Positions 144-27,940 of a DNA stretch of 57,979 bases are shown here, piece after piece. The translations under genes and the position numbers were made by a program. Numbering within the stretch: position 1 is the first letter of the stretch; each line of letters opens with the position of its first letter. The notes beneath the pieces were generated by a model, which was not told where the DNA came from, searched no databases, and saw only the letters and a list, made by a program, of their open reading frames with translations. The DNA is from an uncultured bacterium (GTDB lineage: Bacteria; Cyanobacteriota; Vampirovibrionia; Gastranaerophilales; Gastranaerophilaceae), in NCBI GenBank assembly GCA_949299935.1, contig CASGCE010000001.1:1-57979 (forward strand), read 5' to 3'.

Positions 144-1058
144 ATGGGTTTAAACGCAAATTCAAAGCAGGATCTGGAAGATTTCAAATCATATATTTTA
201 GTTGAAAAAAACTTTTCGGAACATACGGCAAAAGCCTACTGTTCGGACGTTTTAAGCTTTTTAGTGTGGATAAATGATACATCATGTGAAAATGTTAACT
301 TTTCCAAAGTCAGGGATTATCTTCATTTTATCCAAAAATTTAATTACAAAAAGACTACTATAGCCAGAAAAATCGCTTCTATAAGAACTTTTTACAAATT
401 TTTATACAGAGAAAGAAAGGTTAACTCTAATCCGGCATTAAATCTTAATTCTCCAAAACGACCAAAATCACTACCAAAATTTTTAACACCTGATGAAATT
501 GAAAAAATTCTTAACAATGTAAAAATTGACACACCTGCGGGATTTAGAAACAGAGCTATTCTGGAACTTTTGTGGGCAACGGGAATGCGGGTATCCGAAC
601 TCAGCGGATTAAATTTCGGGGATTTGAATTTAGAAAACAATGAAATCCGTGTTTTCGGAAAGGGTGCCAAAGAAAGGATAATTCTTGTAACTGACAGGGC
701 AAAAACTTACCTTGAAAGATATTTAACTTCAGCCCGTATGCTTATACCAAAAGGCTTTAGGGTGGAAGAGCCGACGGAAAGCTCGCCTGTTTTTATTAAT
801 AACACAGGCTACAGGCTGCAAACAAGAACTATCCGTAATGTTATAAATGAAACAGTTGACAAAATTGAACTCCCGAAAAAGGTTACGCCGCACGTATTCA
901 GACACAGTTTTGCAACTCATTTGATAGAAAACGGTGCGGATTTGCGTGTGGTGCAGGAACTTTTAGGACACGCCAGCATCTCAAATACGCAAATCTACAC
1001 ACATGTTTCCATGCAGCATATGAAAGAAGTCTATAACGAAGCCCACCCGAGAGCCTAA
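144..1058 (+). CDS. xerC: Tyrosine recombinase, XerC/XerD type
   Basis: A 304-residue site-specific tyrosine recombinase, close to the usual Xer length. Residues 10-95 form the SAM-like core-binding domain and residues 115-300 the catalytic domain. The catalytic set is visible: Arg in GMRVSEL, Lys in GKGAKER, HVFRH, the GH of LLGHAS and the final Tyr in QIYTH. Family knowledge says such proteins resolve chromosome dimers at dif, paired with a second Xer protein; a candidate partner lies at 35990-36847. No strong ribosome binding site precedes the ATG, so the exact start is uncertain. The gene converges on the prepilin-like gene, sharing four bases at the 3' ends. Confidence 0.9.
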   Translation: MGLNANSKQDLEDFKSYILVEKNFSEHTAKAYCSDVLSFLVWINDTSCENVNFSKVRDYLHFIQKFNYKKTTIARKIASIRTFYKFLYRERKVNSNPALNLNSPKRPKSLPKFLTPDEIEKILNNVKIDTPAGFRNRAILELLWATGMRVSELSGLNFGDLNLENNEIRVFGKGAKERIILVTDRAKTYLERYLTSARMLIPKGFRVEEPTESSPVFINNTGYRLQTRTIRNVINETVDKIELPKKVTPHVFRHSFATHLIENGADLRVVQELLGHASISNTQIYTHVSMQHMKEVYNEAHPRA

Positions 1059-2149
1059 AGCCACGGGTAATCCTCTTTGATTTCCCATCCGTCTAAAAAT
1101 ATTAAATAACCGCAAGCATACATATTATCTAATTCACAGTTTTTCAATGCTGACGCTCTGCTTGAAGCGTATTTGTAAAATTCAAATTGACGAGAATTTA
1201 AGTTGAACCGCATTACAAAAATATCCTTGCCAAGCGTATTGGGACCTTGAAATCCGTTTATATCAACATAAAAATTAGGATTCAAAAATTTATCCACACA
1301 TGTTCCGTCTGCGACACTTGTACCCTCCGCACAGCCTGAAGTTCCTATAACTATACTAACCAAAACATTGCTTGACAAAAGAAAAAAATACTTTCGTGTG
1401 CCGGCACCCGCGGTATAATCTCCGGTCGTCGGGTTTTTAGAACCATCATACTTAATAGCTTGTCTTTTTGTATAACCAAAATCCTTTGATACTTTTAAAT
1501 ACGGTATTAAATACTTTTTAACAAAAAGTTCTAACGCCTCTTTTGAAGAAAAATCACTATCCGCTGTCGGAGTTCCGTAAATTCCGGACACTTCCCAGGT
1601 GGTTGTATCCCCGTGTTCTGCCTGCGCCATTGTGAGAGCCTGCGACAACACCGAATACGTTTGTTTTAATTTTGATACCGTCTGTTTTTTCTGATAATTC
1701 GCTATAAGCGTCGGAATTGTCATAGCTGCCACAATGCCGATTATGGCAAGGGTTATCAAGACTTCTGCTAAGGTAAAGGCGGCTTTCTTTTTAAAGTCGT
1801 TAAGACGATAAGACGTTAGGACATTAAGTTCTTTACTGTGAGTTTTGCTAACATTTGTGTCATCCTGAACTCGTTTCAGGATTTCTGATTTATAATTCAT
1901 CATATCAGAATTATAATTTGTTTCGGGGGCTGTGTCAATTCTTTTTATATCTTGTAGGTCGGGTTTACTAACCCGACTGCTAACTTTTTTGTCGGCATAG
2001 TAATGCCGACCTAGATTTCTAATCCGACTGTTACCTCTTAGTGCCTTAGTGCCATAGTATCTTAGTAACGTTACTAAACCAATACCGCCAAAACCCTTGT
2101 CCTGTCTACTTAGGAGAGTCGCCCCCCCCCCGTTATTAAAACTAGTCAT
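1055..2149 (-). CDS. Prepilin-like protein, copy 1 (poly-G state ON, 10 G)
   Basis: The full frame of 364 residues runs from a Shine-Dalgarno-equipped ATG at 2149 through a ten-G tract into a type IV prepilin-like protein. The prepilin motif is AAFTLAEVLITLAIIG, with mature Phe at residue 125, Glu at +5 and Ala in place of the usual Gly at -1. The C-terminal half carries the motif DINGFQGPNTLGKD, which the copies at 20826 and 27203 share. A second start at 1903 sits 6 bases after a consensus promoter (P2) and gives 282 residues. Even then the leader is 42 residues, much longer than usual, because repeat-like DNA interrupts it. The exported product probably acts at the cell surface; its exact role is unknown. 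Confidence 0.8.
   Translation of the reverse strand: MTSFNNGGGATLLSRQDKGFGGIGLVTLLRYYGTKALRGNSRIRNLGRHYYADKKVSSRVSKPDLQDIKRIDTAPETNYNSDMMNYKSEILKRVQDDTNVSKTHSKELNVLTSYRLNDFKKKAAFTLAEVLITLAIIGIVAAMTIPTLIANYQKKQTVSKLKQTYSVLSQALTMAQAEHGDTTTWEVSGIYGTPTADSDFSSKEALELFVKKYLIPYLKVSKDFGYTKRQAIKYDGSKNPTTGDYTAGAGTRKYFFLLSSNVLVSIVIGTSGCAEGTSVADGTCVDKFLNPNFYVDINGFQGPNTLGKDIFVMRFNLNSRQFEFYKYASSRASALKNCELDNMYACGYLIFLDGWEIKEDYPWL
1862..1882. repeat. REP-like palindrome inside prepilin copy 1
   Basis: A perfect inverted repeat has 8-bp arms, ATCCTGAA and TTCAGGAT, and a 5-base loop. It lies within the coding sequence and encodes ILKRVQDD between the conserved NY and FTLAEV segments. Copies 2 and 3 of the prepilin lack this stretch, so it looks like a short palindromic repeat inserted in frame. 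Confidence 0.6.
1890..1938 (-). promoter_or_regulatory. P2 promoter and start-codon palindrome, prepilin copy 1
   Basis: Read on the minus strand, TTGACA (1938-1933), a 17-bp spacer and TATAAT (1915-1910) make a perfect sigma70 consensus. The ATG follows 6 bases later at 1903, so the transcript would be leaderless. The -10 box lies in one arm of a perfect 9-bp inverted repeat (1890-1898 and 1908-1916, TTATAATTC and GAATTATAA) whose 9-base loop contains the start codon. Copies 2 and 3 have the same geometry. Confidence 0.8.
1958..2077. repeat. Cluster of short palindromes inserted in cassette 1
   Basis: Two perfect hairpins lie side by side: 1958-1977 with arms GTCGGGTT and AACCCGAC, and 1991-2010 with arms GTCGGCAT and ATGCCGAC, each with a 4-base loop. 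An imperfect relative at about 2012-2030 and a 16-bp perfect palindrome at 2062-2077 follow. In cassettes 2 and 3 the poly-G block and the P2 -35 box are only about 14 bases apart. This cluster fills that position in copy 1 and leaves the reading frame open. It resembles REP/MITE-type insertions. Confidence 0.65.
2106..2131 (-). repeat. Poly-G (10 G) tract and two-frame stop block, cassette 1
   Basis: On the minus strand ten G residues (2131-2122) are followed by CGACTCTCCTAAGTAG (2121-2106). With ten G the upstream ATG frame continues as GGGATLLS into the prepilin. Nine G would give GGGRLS and stop at TAA; eight G would stop at TAG. Cassettes 2 and 3 carry nine G and an almost identical 16-base block. 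Confidence 0.85.
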
Positions 2150-20683: not shown

Positions 20684-20727
20684 TTGCCCAAAAGTGAATA
20701 AATTGTTAAAATAGTTCTAAAAAGGAG
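20684..20727 (+). promoter_or_regulatory. P1 promoter and ribosome binding site, cassette 2
   Basis: TTGCCC (20684-20689), 17 bp, TAAAAT (20707-20712), then AAGGAG (20722-20727) 6 bases before the leader ATG at 20734. The arrangement matches cassettes 1 and 3. Confidence 0.7.
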
Positions 20728-20733
20728 AAAAAA

Positions 20734-20772
20734 ATGGAAAGAGAAAAAAGCGGGGGGGGGCGACTCCTCTAA
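20734..20772 (+). CDS. Short leader ORF ending at the poly-G block, cassette 2 (OFF state)
   Basis: A 12-residue ORF, MEREKSGGGRLL, has a good ribosome binding site and ends at the TAA of the conserved 16-base block. It is too short for normal gene calling. With one more G the same ATG reads GGGATPLS and continues in frame into the prepilin at 20826, making a 40-residue stretch before the prepilin cleavage site. Whether the short peptide itself does anything is unknown. Confidence 0.6.
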   Translation: MEREKSGGGRLL

Positions 20773-20776
20773 GTAG
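20752..20776 (+). repeat. Poly-G (9 G) tract and two-frame stop block, cassette 2
   Basis: Nine G (20752-20760) followed by CGACTCCTCTAAGTAG (20761-20776). The block puts TAA in the nine-G frame and TAG in the eight-G frame, leaving only the ten-G frame open. Confidence 0.85.
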
Positions 20777-20790
20777 AAATAGCAAGGGTT

Positions 20791-20839
20791 TTGACCTAAT
20801 CGACACAATGTGCTATAATTCTGGTATGAAGAATTATAG
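20791..20839 (+). promoter_or_regulatory. P2 promoter and start-codon palindrome, prepilin copy 2
   Basis: TTGACC (20791-20796), 17 bp, TATAAT (20814-20819) with an extended TGC, then 6 bases to the ATG at 20826. A perfect inverted repeat, CTATAATTC (20813-20821) and GAATTATAG (20831-20839), holds the -10 box in one arm and the ATG in the 9-base loop. Confidence 0.85.
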
Positions 20840-21539
20840 TTCAAGAAAGGGTTTTACCTTAGCGGAGGTACTAATAACGATAGGAATAATCGGTATAGTA
20901 GCGGCTATTACGATACCAACAATTATCGCAAATTATAAGCAAAAAACATTAGATAACCAGTTTAAAAAGAGTTACGCATTAATAAATCAAGCATTATTAA
21001 ATGCACAGAGTCAATTTGGATACATACCAAAGTGTTATTATCCGTCTGGCACAATAAGTACCGTAATGACAGAAGATTGTACCGAATTATCAAATATATT
21101 TTTAGCATCATTAAAAATAACAAAGATTTGTAAAGATAAAGCCTATGAAAACGGATGTATTCCGGAATATAAAGGTTTTGATGATATCATAAAAGATGTG
21201 CACAAAGATGATGCAGATTACGATGAAGACTATTGGCAAGATTATGCAACGAGAAATTGTGGAGGATTCAATACCTCCAAGATTTTAAATGAAAAAACGG
21301 TATATGTTTTATCAGATGGTACAATATTGTTTTTTCATAGTAATGCATTTGGTTATAATATTATAGTAGCTATAGATATAAATGGAAAAAATGGTCCAAA
21401 CAAATGGGGATATGATTTATTCGGATTTGATTTAAGATACAATGGTCGTGTTTTAAGATATGAGGGTAACGACGGTTGCGCATTACCTGAGCAAGGTGGC
21501 TATAGTGCAAAAGAAATGATAAATAGATTATTCCGCTAA
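20826..21539 (+). CDS. Prepilin-like protein, copy 2
   Basis: A 237-residue protein with the N-terminus MKNYSSRKGFTLAEVLITIG. Cleavage would fall after RKG, leaving Phe at +1 and Glu at +5, followed by a hydrophobic helix (VLITIGIIGIVAAITIPTII) as in type IV pilins and type II secretion pseudopilins. The C-terminal domain has six or more Cys and the family motif AIDINGKNGPNKWGYD. The start at 20826 is preferred over 20808 because it lies 6 bases after a near-consensus -10 box. Its promoter cassette may toggle an extended form. It meets the convergent gene at 21536 with a four-base overlap. Confidence 0.88.
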   Translation: MKNYSSRKGFTLAEVLITIGIIGIVAAITIPTIIANYKQKTLDNQFKKSYALINQALLNAQSQFGYIPKCYYPSGTISTVMTEDCTELSNIFLASLKITKICKDKAYENGCIPEYKGFDDIIKDVHKDDADYDEDYWQDYATRNCGGFNTSKILNEKTVYVLSDGTILFFHSNAFGYNIIVAIDINGKNGPNKWGYDLFGFDLRYNGRVLRYEGNDGCALPEQGGYSAKEMINRLFR

Positions 21540-27101: not shown

Positions 27102-27149
27102 ATGCGTTATAAAGAGTTTAAAAATTTCGGGGGGGGGCGACTCCTCTAA
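27102..27149 (+). CDS. Short leader ORF ending at the poly-G block, cassette 3 (OFF state)
   Basis: A 15-residue ORF, MRYKEFKNFGGGRLL, with a strong ribosome binding site. It stops at the TAA of the conserved block. One additional G would continue it as GGGATPLSSNNKNLD and onwards in frame through YNSNMENY into the prepilin, giving 43 residues before the cleavage site. The first eight codons are unrelated to those of the other two leaders; only the GGGRLL end is conserved. Confidence 0.6.
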   Translation: MRYKEFKNFGGGRLL

Positions 27150-27153
27150 GTAG
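27129..27153 (+). repeat. Poly-G (9 G) tract and two-frame stop block, cassette 3
   Basis: Nine G (27129-27137) followed by CGACTCCTCTAAGTAG (27138-27153), identical over 16 bases to cassette 2. Confidence 0.85.
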
Positions 27154-27167
27154 TAATAACAAGAATC

Positions 27168-27216
27168 TTGACACCTTATCAAACAGAAACTATAATTCAA
27201 ATATGGAGAATTATAG
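27168..27216 (+). promoter_or_regulatory. P2 promoter and start-codon palindrome, prepilin copy 3
   Basis: Perfect consensus TTGACA (27168-27173), 17 bp, TATAAT (27191-27196), then 6 bases to the ATG at 27203. A perfect inverted repeat, CTATAATTC (27190-27198) and GAATTATAG (27208-27216), has the ATG in the 9-base loop. Confidence 0.88.
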
Positions 27217-27940
27217 ATTAAGAAAAGGTTTTACATTAGCGGAAGTACTAATAACGTTGGGAATTATTGGCATAGTAGCAGCAATGACAATTCCGACACT
27301 AATTTCAAAATATCAAAAGAAAATTCTACATACTCAATTTTTAAAAGCATATAGTGATCTACAAAATGTTGCAAAACGTTTTCAAGCGGATGAAGGTATT
27401 ACTGTATATGAATACAGTCAAAAAGAGAGTAGTACACTTTCTACTAATACTCTCAAAAGGTTAATGGAGTATTTTATAGGAGTTGAGAAAGGATCTATTA
27501 CAATTACCAATTATACAAATACAATTGAGAATGCTCTTGGATTTATTCCCAAAAATTTGAAGGGTGAGGATATTTCAGTTTCTCCTTGTGATCGTTCAAT
27601 AGTGACAGAGGAAATTGGCGGAAGGTTTTTTTCAATGGATGATCCTGTGAGTGTTTACAATAATCCTCCTAATGGACCCAAAATTTGTGTTGATATAAAT
27701 GGTAAAAAAGGACCAAACATTTATGGCTATGATTGGTTTGTATTTACATTTACAAAAGATGGTGGTGTTAAGCCTTTTATTGGGCGAGTGCTTCAAAATC
27801 TTGGACTTGATATGGAAGATCCAGCAGACGCATGCAATTATGATTATGAAAGTGTAACATATACTTGTGCTTATTTTGCAGCTACAAATACAAGTCCGGA
27901 AGATCCATCAAAGGACTATTGGAATGATTTTCTAAAATAA
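27203..27940 (+). CDS. Prepilin-like protein, copy 3
   Basis: A 245-residue protein starting MENYRLRKGFTLAEVLITLG. Prepilin peptidase would cut after RKG, leaving Phe +1 and Glu +5, and the hydrophobic helix runs to about residue 33. The C-terminal domain carries CVDINGKKGPNIYGYDWF, the same motif as in copies 1 and 2. That motif could form a turn or metal site; this is a guess from the D-x-N-G spacing. Middle regions of the three copies differ strongly, as expected for surface-exposed, diversifying proteins. It would be exported and assembled or anchored by type IV pilus or type II secretion machinery, which is not encoded in this window. Confidence 0.88.
   Translation: MENYRLRKGFTLAEVLITLGIIGIVAAMTIPTLISKYQKKILHTQFLKAYSDLQNVAKRFQADEGITVYEYSQKESSTLSTNTLKRLMEYFIGVEKGSITITNYTNTIENALGFIPKNLKGEDISVSPCDRSIVTEEIGGRFFSMDDPVSVYNNPPNGPKICVDINGKKGPNIYGYDWFVFTFTKDGGVKPFIGRVLQNLGLDMEDPADACNYDYESVTYTCAYFAATNTSPEDPSKDYWNDFLK

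What the first reader, a model, noticed from the sequence alone, without database searches (positions are those of the whole stretch)
20752..20776. The conserved block after the G tract is a stop signal in two of three frames
CGACTCCTCTAAGTAG gives TAA when the tract has nine G and TAG when it has eight, but reads GATPLS straight through with ten. The variant in copy 1 (CGACTCTCCTAAGTAG) keeps both stops. The overlapping TAA and TAG explain why the block is conserved and make the switch all-or-none: only one tract length in three is ON. This is seen directly in the sequence.
Basis: seen in the sequence. Interest (0 to 1): 0.85.

Follow-up and report, generated by a model that had tools for sequence, protein, structure and literature searches.

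The report
Poly-G frame switches on pilin genes
In a group of uncultured gut bacteria, dozens of scattered pilus-protein genes each begin with a run of about nine Gs followed by a built-in stop signal, so that gaining or losing one G would turn that gene on or off; the principle is known from other bacteria, but this gene family and its scale appear undescribed.

Summary
At 20752-20776, G9 plus CGACTCCTCTAAGTAG reads TAA with nine G, TAG with eight, and is open (GATPLS) with ten. It is one of about 40 such loci in this 1.68-Mb Candidatus Gastranaerophilales-type genome, and the kind recurs across the genus. Each locus is Shine-Dalgarno, ATG, 6-9 codons, G tract, block, leader, then a type IV prepilin domain. 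The prepilin motif's frame is open back to the tract in 187 of 206 loci; the other frames in 6 of 412. Best reading: slipped-strand phase variation of a dispersed prepilin family, mostly OFF in the assemblies.

The stop explanation is only partly right. The nine-G stop is kept in 136 of 149 distinct copies, switching between TAA and TAG while the ON-frame residue changes; the eight-G stop is kept at its place in 123. But other block positions are equally conserved, and positions 4-10 are all-pyrimidine in 145 of 149, able to pair with the G tract. "All-or-none" is unproven: this locus and 23 others in the genome keep an internal ATG behind a promoter-like site. No expression or read data exist, so recoding at the tract is not excluded.

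The parts
20723..20727 (+). Shine-Dalgarno-like AGGAG
   Evidence: sequence; an SD upstream of the leader ATG recurs at nearly every copy
20734..20772 (+). leader start ORF in the assembled nine-G state: MEREKSGGGRLL then TAA
   Evidence: ATG-to-tract distance is a multiple of 3 in 169 of 186 G-tract pilin loci
20752..20760 (+). G9 homopolymeric tract, the switch; ten G opens the long frame
20761..20776 (+). conserved block CGACTCCTCTAAGTAG
20764..20770 (+). pyrimidine heptamer CTCCTCT, can pair with G7 of the tract (20753-20759), loop GCGA
20770..20772 (+). TAA read with nine G
   Evidence: a stop is kept here in 136 of 149 distinct copies
20774..20776 (+). TAG read with eight G
   Evidence: a stop is kept here in 123 of 149
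20791..20796 (+). -35-like TTGACC of the internal promoter-like site (17-nt spacer)
20814..20819 (+). -10-like TATAAT, 6 nt before an in-frame ATG (20826)
20826..21539 (+). prepilin-like protein from the internal ATG (MKNYSSRKGFTLAEV...); Pfam N_methyl, TIGR02532
27102..27149 (+). copy 3 leader start ORF, ATG to TAA; G9 at 27129-27137, block 27138-27153
27203..27940 (+). copy 3 prepilin-like protein behind an internal promoter-like site (27168-27206)
1055..2149 (-). copy 1: tract of ten G (2131-2122), block 2121-2106, open 364-aa frame into a prepilin-like protein (ON state)

Best explanation
A slipped-strand (simple-sequence) phase-variation switch at the start of a dispersed family of type IV prepilin-like genes. 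Translation starts at an SD-led ATG and crosses the G tract. With ten (or seven) G it continues through a leader into the prepilin domain. With nine or eight G it stops within 4-5 codons in the block, giving a 12-18-aa peptide. The block does at least two jobs: it holds the nine-G stop and, more weakly, the eight-G stop; and it is a pyrimidine arm that can pair with the G tract. Shown by sequence: architecture, frame logic, upkeep of the open frame and of the first stop. Inferred: that tract length changes in living cells, that the gene is expressed, and that the long leader is cut off by prepilin peptidase.
For: SD-ATG in phase with the tract and a long frame exactly one G away at about 40 loci in this genome. 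From tract to nearest prepilin motif, found without choosing a frame, the motif frame is open in 187 of 206 loci across 8 genomes and the other frames in 6 of 412, over many different gap lengths. ON states occur naturally: ten G in copy 1, seven G at L108, and 16 of 131 TPLS-module loci. Lengths of 7-12 G, and OFF in both directions, occur. Independent tract modules, including poly-C and other blocks, precede the same prepilin domain. Stop upkeep.
Against: Tract length is strikingly uniform (nine G in 114 of 131 TPLS loci) and equal in 37 of 39 close pairs, most of whose flanks have diverged. No reads, no second strain and no expression data were available. An internal promoter-like site with ATG could make the pilin in every state in 24 of 41 loci of this genome.
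Confidence: 0.72

Rival explanations
1. Recoding: the nine-G template is the working form, and RNA-polymerase slippage or ribosomal frameshifting on the run makes a fixed minority of long product from every locus.
For: Uniform nine-G length, including 37 of 39 close pairs. All loci with a long frame in one species are one step off with a stop directly after the tract (G001, 14 of 14). Intact long frames in almost all 'OFF' genes.
Against: The shift needed differs in sign between modules (G000, G037 and poly-C need +1 nt; G001 and RLAQS need -1). Genetically in-frame loci exist. The hairpin contains the tract itself instead of lying behind it, unlike a usual frameshift stimulator (inference).
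Confidence: 0.15
2. The block is kept mainly as a nucleic-acid pairing partner of the G tract (hairpin), not as a stop signal; the stops come along with it. (About the block only; compatible with the switch.)
For: Positions 4-10 pyrimidine in 145 of 149 copies with C/T interchange; ON-frame wobble sites of codons 2 and 3 never purine although Thr/Ser/Pro codons here are about half purine-ending; 86% of ON-synonymous recodings pair more weakly; the same hairpin in the minimum-energy structure of all six folds.
Against: It does not explain the constant A at position 11 and the constant purine at 12, which stops do. Whole-region fold z-scores are modest (0.07 to -2.0). The arm is weak or absent in some other modules. 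Copies share descent.
Confidence: 0.3
3. The pilin is made from its own internal promoter and leaderless ATG (TTGACC-17-TATAAT-6-ATG at 20791-20828); the tract ORF is an upstream regulatory ORF or only alters an N-terminal extension.
For: 29 sites with at most one mismatch to TTGAC-N18-TATAATTC-NNN-TATGA in the genome; 24 of 41 loci keep such an internal ATG; the same kind of site behind poly-C modules; one tract-less pilin has it without an SD (L406).
Against: Site or ATG is missing in many copies (17 of 41 here, most in relatives) whose long frame stays open. An upstream regulatory ORF would not need an open frame through the leader, yet that frame is open in 187 of 206 loci.
Confidence: 0.25

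Closest known systems
Neisseria opa genes (about 11 dispersed loci, CTCTT repeats in the leader-peptide coding region; PMC3745409)
   Same: dispersed surface-protein gene family, each member switched by a repeat in the leader coding region; frame restored or broken
   Different: pentamer repeat, Opa adhesins; here mononucleotide G or C, prepilins, about 40 or more loci, a dedicated stop block and pyrimidine arm; switching not yet shown
Poly-G contingency genes of Campylobacter and Neisseria (own knowledge; Neisseria and Campylobacter papers listed)
   Same: homopolymeric G tracts of about 8-12 near the 5' end of coding regions; frame ON/OFF
   Different: there varied gene types; here one homologous module copied in front of one protein family, in a lineage without a report in the library searched
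Programmed frameshifting / transcriptional realignment genes (dnaX, IS elements; PMC3711429)
   Same: conserved homopolymer with a stop just behind it in one frame and a continuing frame in another
   Different: shift direction differs between modules, genetically in-frame members exist, no common structure behind the tract

Membership tests
Slipped-strand (SSR) phase-variable genes | mononucleotide or short repeat inside or next to the 5' coding region | tested here: met
   G7-G12 and C7-C12 tracts shortly after an SD-led start
Slipped-strand (SSR) phase-variable genes | one unit change moves the gene between a full-length and a truncated frame | tested here: met
Slipped-strand (SSR) phase-variable genes | both ON and OFF lengths seen at homologous loci | tested here: met
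   TPLS module 16 ON, 115 OFF; across paralogues and species, not one locus in one population
Slipped-strand (SSR) phase-variable genes | length varies reversibly within a population at high rate | not testable with these tools
   no reads, one genome per species; 37 of 39 close pairs agree in length
Type IV prepilin-like proteins | N-terminal cleavage/methylation motif (PF07963, TIGR02532) | tested here: met
   all three window copies above the curated cut-offs; 73 places in the genome, 72 above the cut-off
Programmed frameshift genes | constant shift direction at a conserved slippery site with a stimulator | tested here: not met
   direction differs between modules; no structure behind the tract common to the six folds, the shared hairpin contains the tract

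The most novel reading that the evidence does not exclude
A genus-wide recoding system: fixed nine-G tracts, paired with a pyrimidine arm, make dozens of pilins at a low set rate by RNA-level slippage or frameshifting, with ten-G copies as constitutive forms.
Probability: 0.13. Interest if true: 0.8.

Novelty: new variant of a known kind. Interest (0 to 1): 0.6.

Why it matters
If true, these gut bacteria (uncultured, non-photosynthetic relatives of cyanobacteria) carry an unusually large set of frame-switch genes per megabase, devoted to one surface-fibre family, with a stop-and-pairing block as a repeated module. It would point to strong pressure from host immunity, phage or attachment in a poorly known gut lineage. 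Gene callers that start at the internal ATG, or miss copies without one, will mis-annotate these genes. It can be checked on existing metagenome reads.

Tried and rejected
Stop proximity as proof of selection: both OFF frames stop within four codons at about 9% of positions in these genes, so proximity alone proves little. 'OFF by selection' across modules: the modal length is OFF in five of five module types, chance (2/3)^5 = 0.13, not significant. Translational coupling from the nine-G stop to the internal ATG: 53 nt apart without an SD, unlikely. Phage or plasmid origin: no match in viral contigs or plasmids. Literature: no paper in the held library joins Gastranaerophilales with 'phase variation' or Melainabacteria with 'phase-variable'; the single Melainabacteria/homopolymeric hit is a phylogeny paper. 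Subscription journals and preprints are not covered.

Full report
What is there. The window lies in a 1.68-Mb, 37-contig genome, 97% complete. Public records holding the same block are titled Candidatus Gastranaerophilales MAGs or an uncultured bacterium, and several match its genus-mates by contig and position. From the ATG at 20734, nine G ends at TAA after MEREKSGGGRLL, eight G ends at TAG after MEREKSGGGDSSK, and ten G reads on through ATPLSRNSKGFDLIDTMCYNSGMKNYSSRKGFTLA.

Family. The genome has 55 tracts of seven or more G, 53 of them after a C, 34 block copies with up to two mismatches, and 73 prepilin-motif places. About 40 G-tract loci have an SD-led start in phase with the tract and a long prepilin frame one G away. 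About eight poly-C loci have the same plan with a different leader (M.K...KAVQIVAPPP). The block was found in 12 of 16 genomes of the genus and in none of 272 genomes of other genera in the family. G8-or-longer tracts are common in most genera of the family, and in another genus (G037) a different G module precedes the same prepilin motif. The tracts fetched from G090, G105 and G039 mostly did not show this arrangement, so not every tract in the family is of this kind.

Is the long frame real? I looked for the nearest prepilin motif in any frame behind each tract, without picking the frame. The motif's frame is open back to the tract in 187 of 206 loci, the other two frames in 6 of 412. G001 is the main exception (12 of 17 interrupted). 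Distances from tract to motif differ widely (from 7 to about 190 codons), so the frame has been kept through many insertions and deletions. This is the strongest evidence that the tract frame is translated into the pilin.

States. In the TPLS module (this block) 16 loci are ON, 114 need one G more and 1 needs one fewer. Other modules: G037 3 ON and 13 needing one more; poly-C VAPPP 4 ON, 18 needing one more, 2 one fewer; RLAQS 1 ON, 4 needing one fewer; G001 none ON, 14 needing one fewer, of which 5 carry the prepilin motif. Such uniformity could be the population consensus of a tract whose commonest length is nine, or a sign that nine is the working template. It is not resolved here: 37 of 39 close pairs share the same length.

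Stops. Among 149 distinct block copies the nine-G frame stops at codon 4 in 136 (TAA 105, TAG 31). The eight-G frame stops at codon 5 in 123 and at codon 7 in 18 more. Position 11, an ON-frame wobble base, is A in every copy; position 12 is always a purine although it changes the ON residue (S, G, N, D, T, A). CTA, about 5% of Leu codons in these genes, is the ON codon in 128 copies. That is what upkeep of the first stop predicts; shared descent weakens the count. The second stop is less constrained, in keeping with the rarity of eight-G states.

A second constraint. Positions 4-10 are pyrimidine in 145 of 149 copies, with free C/T interchange, and the ON-frame wobble sites of codons 2 and 3 are never purine although about half of Thr, Ser and Pro codons in the same genes end in a purine. 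They pair with seven G of the tract in the minimum-energy structure of all six folds, and 86% of ON-synonymous recodings pair more weakly. What the hairpin does is unknown. So 'the stops explain why the block is conserved' is only part of the story.

Internal start. In 24 of 41 loci of this genome, this one and copy 3 included, the leader contains an in-frame ATG, usually 8 codons before the motif, with a -10-like site just upstream. TTGAC-N18-TATAATTC-NNN-TATGA occurs with at most one mismatch at 29 places. Most tract-less pilins instead have an ordinary SD and a short leader; one (L406) has the leaderless arrangement alone. If this promoter works, the pilin could be made in every tract state at these copies. 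Other copies, and most in relatives, lack it, so for them the tract would be decisive.

Slot next to der. The copy at 20752 lies behind der (EngA-type GTPase). G010 has a tract gene of the same kind there, with GGGGGGGGA in place of nine G and the same OFF frame; G011 and G015 have none. Loci thus come and go.

Verdict. Observation confirmed; the mechanism is most likely simple-sequence phase variation of a prepilin family (0.72), with switching itself not shown. The closest known system by design is the Neisseria opa family (PMC3745409).

Noticed in passing
L098, L101, L103, L106, L112, L114, L117: A second, poly-C leader module (M.K...KAVQIVAPPP) in front of prepilin domains, mostly nine C and one base short of the open frame.
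   Followed up: partly
L019, just upstream of 1492: A T9 run in the leader before the G tract puts that copy out of frame by itself; a related leader (L030) has GTTTCTCGT instead.
   Followed up: no
window 1900-2100 (-) and many leaders in G005, G011, G015: Leaders between block and prepilin motif contain what look like dispersed repeats (for example ICHPEAKPKDL, VILNLFQ in translation) kept in frame.
   Followed up: no
L388 end (G013, behind der): A C13 tract at the very end of the fetched stretch behind der, another candidate switch.
   Followed up: no
L326-L334 (G090), L355-L374 (G105, G039): G8-or-longer tracts in other genera that mostly do not precede a prepilin frame; two tracts in L333 (G090), G9 and G10, precede similar hydrophobic proteins and both are open.
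   Followed up: no
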